This document shows, piece after piece, positions 1-33,931 of a stretch of 33,931 bases of DNA. Source of the DNA: Bacillota bacterium. Its GTDB lineage: Bacteria > Bacillota > SHA-98 > UBA4971. The stretch covers positions 1-33,931 of the forward strand of contig DUSX01000005.1 in the NCBI GenBank assembly GCA_012842395.1. The letters run 5' to 3'. The translations under genes were made by a program, and so were the position numbers. Below the pieces are notes generated by a model. The model had not been told where the DNA came from, searched no databases, and saw only the letters and a list, made by a program, of their open reading frames with translations. Position 1 is the first letter of the stretch; every line of letters begins with the position of its first letter.

Positions 1-33
1 ACGGGCTTACACCCCCTTCGGGTGGCAAGGATT

Positions 34-300
34 TGGGGCATCCCCGGCACCTCACCAGATCGACTGCCTCGTTATTAGCACTGGAGGCTCTGCCCGGACT
101 GCACCCCGCTTTGCTCAGGGCGGGCAGGCAGGGCCTCCGCGCAGTCTAGGGGTTAGAGGCTCAAGGTGAGGTCGGGGAAACATTCTCATGCGAAAAGTCA
201 CTCATCCCATGCCTGATTAAGGCTTGGGAGTCATCGTGCAACTGGAGGGGGCAAGAGTTACCCCAGCCGACCCAAGTATATTTTCCCAGGGATGCCCCAA
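34..300 (+). ncRNA. Putative structured RNA, family not recognised
   Basis: A 12-bp perfect complementary pair closes this segment: TTGGGGCATCCC near 34-45 and GGGATGCCCCAA at 289-300. Inside it lie further pairings: CCTCACC near 51-57 with GGTGAGG near 165-171; GGAGGC...TGCCCG (about 82-95) with CGGGCAGGCAGGGCCTCC (about 122-139); the hairpin CCCATGCCTGATTAAGGCTTGGG; and CTGGAGGGG with CCCCAG. This multi-branched layout in a gene-free stretch suggests a stable RNA or long leader. It is followed at once by AAAGGAGACAAAA, which resembles the tail of the dispersed repeats described below. I could not match it to SRP RNA, RNase P RNA, 6S RNA, a T-box or a known riboswitch by eye. The + strand is assumed from the downstream gene. 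Confidence 0.45.
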
Positions 301-569
301 AGGAGACAAAATCATATCGGATTATCAGCGACGGGATCCAGGATGTCCGGGGTAAGATGCTCGAGGGCTGACCCGCGCCCCGGGGGCGCCGGCCGCTGGT
401 GGCCTTGAGAGCGCCTAAAGCATCTATCGCCTGCGCCGCGCCCGGCGGGCCGTTAGGGTATGGCCCTTCGCCGGTCGCGGCTACGACGGCCGTCGGCCCA
501 CCAGCGGCTAACCCGGATATGCGACCTGGCTTGTACCGTCAACCAGTAATATACGAGGGAGGGGACGAG
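301..569 (+). other. Non-coding leader with a second long hairpin
   Basis: This is the gap between the putative RNA and the glycosyltransferase start. GCCGCTGGTGGCC near 391-404 can pair with GGCCCACCAGCGGC near 494-508, enclosing about 90 nt of GC-rich sequence that itself contains GGCCGTTAGGGTATGGCC. The glycosyltransferase frame stays open upstream to 399, but the extra residues are low-complexity and unlike the family's N-terminus. I therefore read this stretch as untranslated leader. No clear promoter was found. Confidence 0.3.
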
Positions 570-1844: not shown

Positions 1845-2060
1845 GTATGTCGCCAGAAGTTCGCGCTACTTTTCGGCGGAGGGATCCTGTCCAGGGTTGC
1901 CGGTGTCGTCCTCCGGGGACGGCGTGCTTGCGGCGCGCCTCGTTCGAATTCTCGAATTCAGCGCGCAAGCCTGCTGAATTCTCCACGCCCCGTCGTGTGC
2001 AAGCACCGCCGACCCTAGCGCCCTCAACAAAGGAGACGAAAACTTATGGCGCCATACTAG
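1845..2060 (+). repeat. Dispersed intergenic repeat, copy A (long form)
   Basis: This fills most of the gap between the glycosyltransferase and the nucleotidyltransferase. The modules in order are: AGAAGTTCGCGCTACTTTTC; AGGGTTGCCGGTG (about 1893-1906); GGGGACGGCGTGCTTGCGGC; TCGTTCGAATTC; CCACGCCCCGTCGTG; CACCGCCGACCCTAGCGCC; and a tail AAAGGAG (2029-2035) followed by the palindrome ATGGCGCCAT (2046-2055). The second module is the imperfect reverse complement of the later CACCGCCGACCCT region, so the RNA or DNA could form a long stem. Copies C and D share all modules. The tail reads as a ribosome binding site plus ATG GCG CCA TAC TAG. No protein-coding potential was seen otherwise. Confidence 0.75.
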
Positions 2061-20809: not shown

Positions 20810-21048
20810 TGGATCCACCTCCCGGCCCGGTCTAGGCATGGCGCCATAGGTTTTCGTTTCGTCTCCTTTCTTGACGGCGCTAGGGTTGCCGGTGGATGCA
20901 CAACGGGGCGTGGAGGATTTGGCTGGCTCGCGGCCGAATTCGAACGACGCGCGCCGCAAGCGCACCATCCCCGCAGGGCAACACCGATAGCCTTGAGCAG
21001 GACCCCCGCGCCGAGCCGAAAGATAGCGCGAACTTCTAGTGGAGGCTG
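20803..21048 (-). repeat. Dispersed intergenic repeat, copy D (long form)
   Basis: On the minus strand this reads CTAGAAGTTCGCGCTATCTT, then CTATCGGTGTTGCC, GCGGGGATGGTGCGCTTGCG with GCGCG, TCGTTCGAATTCGG, CCTCCACGCCCCGTTGTG, CACCGGCAACCCTAGCGCC, AAAGGAGACGAAACG and CTATGGCGCCATGCC. It is the closest relative of copy A, sharing every module. It lies in the 448-nt divergent gap between spmA and whiA and points into spmA. The tail ATG (20847) opens MAPCLDRAGRWIQW, whose stop TAA overlaps the first codons of spmA. From 21049 to 21257 I see only the possible whiA promoter. Confidence 0.75.
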
Positions 21049-33813: not shown

Positions 33814-33931
33814 GGGGGCGTTACGGTTTCGACGGGGAGCTGTGACGACAGGGGTAGCGAGCCGAGATCCCGCCGACCTCGTTAAACGGTGGAACGCACG
33901 ATAAGTGCCAACAACGAGTACGCTTACGCTG
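33814..33931 (+). ncRNA. ssrA: tmRNA (transfer-messenger RNA), 5' part
   Basis: The 5' end GGGGGCGTTACGGTTTCGAC is the conserved acceptor-stem and D-arm start of tmRNA. The tag frame begins near 33907 and reads A-N-N-E-Y-A-Y-A before the window ends, similar to known clostridial tags. The 3' tRNA-like half lies outside the window, so the gene is cut by the edge. No strong promoter is visible just upstream. Confidence 0.92.

What the first reader, a model, noticed from the sequence alone, without database searches (positions are those of the whole stretch)
34..300. Large multi-branched putative RNA upstream of the glycosyltransferase
Perfect 12-bp terminal pairing encloses several nested stems over 267 nt with no coding frame. 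I could not assign it to a known RNA class. It ends directly before AAAGGAGACAAAA, the same type of tail found after repeats A and D.
Basis: seen in the sequence. Interest (0 to 1): 0.55.

Follow-up and report, generated by a model that had tools for sequence, protein, structure and literature searches.

The report
Bridge RNA of an IS110 transposon
The folded RNA is real but belongs to the opposite strand: it is the guide ("bridge") RNA of a jumping gene of the IS110 family that landed in the ribosome-binding site of a glycosyltransferase gene, and its relatives appear to use such guides to home in on gene starts.

Summary
The structure is real, but it is read on the minus strand and is not a part of the glycosyltransferase gene. 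Window 1-555 is the left non-coding end of an IS110-family insertion sequence; the contig breaks at the probable transposase start codon. Copies in two other genomes of the genus (93% and 99% identical) carry a DEDD/Tnp transposase gene on the minus strand directly beyond this end, and orthologous glycosyltransferase loci in five genomes lack the segment.

A covariance model built only from six relatives outside this family hits the window once, at 264-43 minus (E 4e-7). In the 28-row alignment 53 of 65 pairs show changes on both sides. The target guide tracks the insertion site and the donor guide the right end (0 of 20,000 permutations each, not corrected for relatedness). The other two guides are weak or untestable. 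Joined ends give TTGACA-17-TATATT.

The clade inserts at the complement of Shine-Dalgarno sequences: 25 of 39 elements have a start codon 12-15 nt from the core, against 4.7% of control positions. IS900 has a published target motif of similar layout. Both readable transposases of this family have threonine at the catalytic serine position. Expression and activity are untested. New member of a known kind.

The parts
1..555 (-). Left non-coding end (LE) of an IS110-group element; the transposase gene would continue beyond window base 1 (contig end)
   Evidence: Homology to L041, L042, L043; transposase gene next to it in L041 with PF01548 and PF02371; left boundary from comparison of copies
32..301 (-). 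Bridge RNA, structured part, closed by a 13-bp terminal stem (289-301 with 32-44)
   Evidence: Fold z -5.68; covariance model of relatives hits 264-43 minus, E 4e-7; covariation
174..264 (-). Target-binding loop domain (loop 1); stem GGGG at 261-264 with CCCC at 174-177
   Evidence: Aligned to model helix 1; coordinates; 6 kcal/mol above the minimum-energy fold when imposed
243..252 (-). Putative left target guide, GCCCCCUCCA
   Evidence: Position by alignment to relatives whose guide tracks their target; own match to the insertion site 6 of 8
187..196 (-). Putative right target guide, UUUUCGCAUG
   Evidence: Position by alignment only; support across the family weak (337 of 20,000 permutations); right flank of this copy is not in the assembly
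49..173 (-). Donor-binding loop domain (loop 2); outer stem 165-172 with 49-56, inner hairpin 83-138
   Evidence: Model helices 3-11; coordinates
142..156 (-). Left donor guide, CUAACCCCUAGACUG, copying the element's right end (ACACCCTAG)
   Evidence: Family test 0 of 20,000 permutations
68..79 (-). Right donor guide, GCUAAUAACGAG, facing the LE start CT-CGTATATTA
   Evidence: Visual complementarity with one skipped base; the permutation test is uninformative (5809 of 20,000)
548..553 (-). TATATT, -10 box of the promoter that the joined ends would form with TTGACA of the right end (17-bp spacing)
   Evidence: Read from the ends; relatives
556..557 (-). CT core dinucleotide
   Evidence: Shared by left and right junctions of copies
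558..567 (-). Left target, CGTCCCCTCC on the minus strand = GGAGGGGACG, the ribosome-binding site of the glycosyltransferase (ATG at 570)
   Evidence: Kept in empty-site orthologues
10..19 (-). Probable ribosome-binding site of the transposase (GAAGGGGGTG); start codon GTG straddling the contig edge
   Evidence: Alignment with relatives; coordinates; inferred

Best explanation
Window 32-301, minus strand, encodes the bridge RNA of an IS110-group insertion sequence whose left end fills window 1-555. Inferred mechanism, as worked out for IS621: the element excises as a circle; joining the right and left ends rebuilds a sigma-70-type promoter (TTGACA-17-TATATT) that reads through the left end; the RNA binds the DEDD/Tnp recombinase; loop 1 pairs with the genomic target and loop 2 with the element's own joined ends; recombination occurs at a CT core. 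In this clade the target guide copies the complement of a Shine-Dalgarno sequence, so the elements land at ribosome-binding sites, commonly 12-15 nt from a start codon. Here that was the site of a glycosyltransferase. Shown here: element identity, boundaries, strand, conserved covarying fold, left-target and left-donor guide correspondence across the family, and start-codon-proximal insertion. Inferred: transcription, recombinase binding, activity, and the working of the two right-hand guides.
For: Adjacent gene in L041 is an IS110 transposase (PF01548 E 1.3e-25, PF02371 E 5.6e-21; IS621 in PDB E 2.8e-11). Copies and boundaries. Empty sites in five genomes. A model made from six relatives outside the family (transposases about 51-53% identical) hits only 264-43 minus in the window, E 4e-7, and only there in the window's genome at E <= 0.01. 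53 of 65 pairs with changes on both sides; 416 such cells against 139.5 (sd 10.7) shuffled and 82-98 with slid partners. Left target guide 6.75 of 8 own against 5.77 others, left donor guide 5.96 of 8 against 4.34, 0 of 20,000 permutations each. Start codon 12-15 nt from the core in 25 of 39 elements against 178 of 3800 control positions.
Against: No expression data. The window copy lacks its transposase gene and right end (contig end). Guide-target match is poorest in this family: window 6 of 8, L041 6 of 8, L042 4 of 8. Its target guide ends in CA although the element core is CT. Right target guide only weakly supported (337 of 20,000; thinned set 922 of 20,000) and right donor guide untestable (5809 of 20,000). 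Permutations ignore relatedness of the elements, which inflates the donor test above all. The covariation alignment was fitted to the model. The start-codon control is not matched for CCTCC content, and copies within one genome were counted apart. The relaxed model search missed 3 of 32 sources (L102, L103, L104) and gave a spurious opposite-strand hit in L091 at E 0.017.
Confidence: 0.9

Rival explanations
1. A plus-strand leader RNA or riboswitch of the glycosyltransferase gene.
For: It lies directly upstream on the plus strand and folds better than shuffles there too (z -2.78).
Against: Absent from five orthologous loci of the genus; present upstream of an ATP synthase c gene in L041; the fold, the covariance-model hit and the adjacent transposase gene are all on the minus strand.
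Confidence: 0.02
2. It is a bridge RNA in origin, but this family is decayed: the RNA no longer directs recombination.
For: Threonine at the serine position in P0001 and P0002; imperfect guide-target match in the window copy, L041 and L042; one copy internally deleted.
Against: The two family genes (L041 full, L043 partial with unread bases) show dN 0.014 and dS 0.096 over 376 codons, ratio about 0.15. The 99% identity of the window copy and L041, which lie at different loci in different genomes, suggests recent movement.
Confidence: 0.3
3. The segment mainly controls the transposase mRNA (5' leader structure, as small RNAs are reported to do for ISPpu9), with guide function secondary.
For: The structure ends about 13 bases before the probable transposase ribosome-binding site; ISPpu9 is reported to be regulated by small RNAs and its 5'-UTR structure (abstract in search listing only, PMC8450116).
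Against: Loops track target and donor sequences across the family, which regulation alone does not require.
Confidence: 0.05

Closest known systems
IS621 bridge RNA and recombinase (IS110 group; PMC11208160, PMC11208158, passages and sections read)
   Same: RNA in the left end, two internal loops, CT core, junction promoter, DEDD/Tnp protein
   Different: Larger RNA (structured part 270 nt against 177 nt), about 240 nt of extra left end before it, Shine-Dalgarno-type targets, threonine at the serine position in this family
IS900 of Mycobacterium avium subsp. paratuberculosis (IS110 family; PMC8141618, passages)
   Same: Target motif CATGNNNNNNTCTCCTT has a start codon complement followed by a Shine-Dalgarno complement, the same layout as here
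   Different: I did not test its bridge RNA, its core or its relation to this clade; insertion at ribosome-binding sites in older IS900 papers is recalled, not read
seekRNAs of ISEc11 and ISEc21 (PMC11187229, passages)
   Same: Non-coding-region RNA that selects the target; ISEc21 is IS110-type with an upstream non-coding region
   Different: Different targets; ISEc11 is IS1111-type with a downstream RNA

Membership tests
IS110-group element | DEDD and Tnp (PF01548, PF02371) transposase | tested here: met
   L041 ORF, both above curated cut-offs; not present in the window's own assembly
IS110-group element | DEDD residues plus conserved Tnp serine | tested here: inconclusive
   DEDD present; serine position is threonine in P0001 and P0002; among 28 other proteins aligned 27 have serine and 1 has a stop there
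IS110-group bridge RNA | RNA in the left end rather than the right end | tested here: met
   Model hit at 264-43 minus, upstream of the transposase position
IS110-group bridge RNA | Two stem-loops with internal loops, conserved by covariation | tested here: met
   53 of 65 pairs with changes on both sides, alignment fitted to the model
IS110-group bridge RNA | Left target guide matches the target | tested here: met
   Family level, 24 of 28 rows usable, 0 of 20,000 permutations; window copy only 6 of 8
IS110-group bridge RNA | Right target guide matches the target | tested here: inconclusive
   337 of 20,000 permutations, 23 of 28 rows usable
IS110-group bridge RNA | Left and right donor guides match the element's ends | tested here: inconclusive
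   Left 0 of 20,000; right 5809 of 20,000 because the partner hardly varies
IS110-group bridge RNA | Promoter rebuilt at the circle junction | tested here: met
   TTGACA-17-TATATT read from the two ends of L041 and L042; activity not tested
IS110-group bridge RNA | Transcribed and bound by the recombinase | not testable with these tools

The most novel reading that the evidence does not exclude
A lineage of bridge RNAs found in many genomes of this phylum carries an anti-Shine-Dalgarno-like guide that lets the element home to gene starts genome-wide while leaving the gene's ribosome-binding site intact; and in this genus the recombinase works with a threonine in place of the serine nucleophile.
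Probability: 0.3. Interest if true: 0.65.

Novelty: new member of a known kind. Interest (0 to 1): 0.42.

Why it matters
It replaces an orphan "large structured RNA" with a concrete part of an RNA-guided transposon. It also points to a guide strategy, copying the complement of the Shine-Dalgarno sequence, that would give an IS110 element a very large number of start-codon-proximal targets per genome and could explain why the IS900 target motif looks like a gene start. If confirmed, such elements are natural recombinases that insert at ribosome-binding sites, and the threonine variant would test how strict the serine chemistry is.

Tried and rejected
Rfam at gathering and relaxed thresholds: nothing useful. 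Plus-strand leader of the glycosyltransferase: rejected from empty sites. First idea that the terminal stem hides a transposase ATG (window 41-39): dropped, since relatives start beyond the stem behind a Shine-Dalgarno sequence, which puts this family's start at a GTG on the contig edge (output partly cut). Sequence-only alignment of distant RNAs misaligned the stems; replaced by a covariance model. In one search I imposed the donor stem in a wrong register; one search is the corrected run. Viral contigs: no relative. Flank search for the L042 empty site found only its own genome (1 of 9). Shared AAAGGAGACAAAA tail: probably coincidence. Search of 17 genomes of the class for more family copies: none beyond G002, G003 and G013.

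Rows dropped before counts. Searches left out six representatives that duplicate fetched copies (L078, L090, L092, L095, L096, L099) and six elements without a recognisable left end (L083, L084, L086, L094, L102, L127). L103's junction is probably mis-called but was kept. L042 is and not. One search used 24 of 28 rows for left junctions and 23 of 28 for right junctions; L086 was skipped by hand. One search was given 28 of the 32 sources: I left out L100 (E 0.019) and L102, L103, L104 (no hit at E 0.1); this also removed a spurious opposite-strand hit in L091 from the alignment. The whole-genome model search scored 150 of 507 candidates in G003 and reported one of its two copies.

Literature seen. 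PMC11208160: outline, passages, sections 6 and 12. PMC11208158, PMC11187229, PMC8141618, PMC7823733, PMC7288454, PMC3196728: passages. PMC8450116: search listing only. In the held library, searches for Shine-Dalgarno or ribosome-binding-site targeting by IS110 elements listed no paper that, from titles, abstract starts and the passages I read, describes such guides; (IS110, catalytic serine, threonine) returned none. Older IS900 papers on ribosome-binding-site insertion are recalled only.

Full report
Window 32-44 and 289-301 form a perfect 13-bp pairing; 0 of 1000 shuffles of the first 320 bases had one this long. The enclosed segment folds better than shuffles on both strands, but more clearly on the minus strand (z -5.68 for 32-301 minus; -2.78 for 34-300 plus). 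Rfam 15 has no match at gathering score there.

What it belongs to. The window is a whole contig, so its first base is a contig end. Window 1-565 is a repeat: it recurs at 98.9% in G003:C111 (L041), at 86.7% in G003:C74 (L042) and, to base 346, at 93.1% in G002:C116 (L043), where that contig ends. Homology stops at window 563-565, next to the glycosyltransferase ATG at 570. In L041 the element continues beyond the window's first base into a 424-codon gene on the opposite strand that matches both Pfam domains of IS110 transposases and the solved IS621 and ISCro4 proteins. The search of 41 genomes found no copy of this transposase in the window's own assembly, as expected if the contig broke in a repeat. 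The window thus shows the left end and none of the gene; the probable GTG start straddles the contig edge (inferred from the alignment).

Boundaries. Comparing copies gives a CT core at both ends: left end target-CT-CGTATATTACTGG, right end TTGACATTACACCCTAGGT-CT-flank in L042. Multi-copy relatives from six genomes (20 regions; the left end of L127 was outside its region) show closely similar ends. Of the 30 elements, 23 have CTCGTA upstream of the gene and 25 have TTGACA followed by ACCG or ACCC downstream (my count of the printed rows). Joined, the ends give TTGACA-17-TATATT (TATAAT in many relatives), a junction promoter like that described for IS621 (PMC11208160, passages). Five genomes of the genus have the glycosyltransferase without the insertion, with the flank GGGAGGGGACGAGATG kept (one base differs in L109).

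The RNA is a bridge RNA. Left ends of relatives share motifs with this one although their transposases are only about 40-61% identical. A covariance model was built from six relatives outside this family. It finds one place in the window at E <= 10, 264-43 on the minus strand, 33.3 bits, E 4e-7, and one place in the window's genome at E <= 0.01. Of 32 sources given, 29 have a hit at the expected place (28 below 1e-4, L100 at 0.019) and L102, L103 and L104 have none; 6 of the 29 are the training sequences and 4 are this family. On the 28-row alignment, 86.0% of 1634 cells pair (shuffled 62.8), 53 of 65 pairs have changes on both sides, and 416 cells are changed on both sides, against 139.5 (sd 10.7) shuffled and 82-98 with slid partners. 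The alignment was fitted to the model, so these counts lean towards it, but the slid controls are far lower. In the window's own sequence the bridge fold lies 6.1 kcal/mol above the minimum-energy fold.

Guides. Loop 1, 5' side, tracks the left target: mean 6.75 of 8 for own against 5.77 for other elements, 0 of 20,000 permutations, n=24 (thinned to 17: also 0). Loop 2, 5' side, tracks the right end: 5.96 against 4.34, 0 of 20,000, n=23 (thinned: also 0). Loop 1, 3' side, is weakly supported: 337 of 20,000, n=23 (thinned: 922). Loop 2, 3' side, gives 5809 of 20,000, n=24, because its partner hardly varies. The permutations do not correct for relatedness; this matters most for loop 2, where guide and partner are inherited together. 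The match is poorest in this family: window copy 6 of 8, L041 6, L042 4. The family's target guide ends in CA although the element core is CT, and the window copy's right guide reads as CA (UG) where L041 has CT (AG). This is unexplained; three of the five empty-site orthologues (L106, L107, L110) have CA at that place.

Target choice. Left targets are CCTCC-like, the complement of a Shine-Dalgarno sequence: 25 of 38 junctions contain CTCCT in the last eight bases. Reading outward, 25 of 39 elements have the start codon of an ORF of at least 60 codons 12-15 nt from the core, against 178 of 3800 random positions in the same flanks. With a looser window of 3-24 nt it is 28 of 40 against 421 of 1760. 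Control positions were not matched for CCTCC, and copies within one genome count apart. The ribosome-binding site survives on the gene side. IS900's published motif CATGNNNNNNTCTCCTT (PMC8141618, passage) has a similar layout, so the preference has precedent; the searches listed under literature showed no paper linking it to a bridge RNA guide.

Recombinase. DEDD residues are present, but the position that aligns with IS621's catalytic serine (my reading with the passages) is threonine in L041 (P0001) and L043 (P0002). Among the 28 other proteins aligned, 27 have serine and one has a stop there. The two family genes differ at 36 bases over 376 codons, 22 codons silently and 12 not, dN 0.014 and dS 0.096, so the protein appears constrained. 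Whether it is active is open.

Verdict. A known kind of thing, an IS110 bridge RNA, correctly spotted as a structured RNA but read on the wrong strand. What lifts it above routine is the start-codon-homing guide of its clade and the threonine variant.

Noticed in passing
window 1855-2045 (also 20857-21037, inverted): A dispersed repeat of about 190 bp: at least 40 copies, 77-87% identical, in the window's genome (191 first-look candidates, 40 scored).
   Followed up: partly
L041 4787-6061 and L043 297-1430 (proteins P0001, P0002, residue 343): Threonine where IS621 and 27 of 28 other aligned relatives have the catalytic serine, with dN/dS about 0.15 between the two copies.
   Followed up: partly
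window 302-541, minus strand: About 240 nt of G+C-rich left end between the junction promoter and the bridge RNA (fold z -2.03). Left ends vary much in length between relatives (core to the GID codon about 333-741 nt); its role is unexplained.
   Followed up: partly
window 243-252 against L042 and L043: The putative left target guide differs between copies of the family (window GCCCCCTCCA, L043 GCCACCCCCA, L042 ACCGCCCCA), while the donor guide changes little: possible guide drift.
   Followed up: no
window 33814-33931, plus strand: 5' part of a tmRNA gene cut off by the other contig end (Rfam RF00023, 61.4 bits).
   Followed up: no
L042 (G003:C74): An internally deleted copy that kept both ends and the bridge RNA but lost much of the transposase gene; possibly a non-autonomous derivative.
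   Followed up: no
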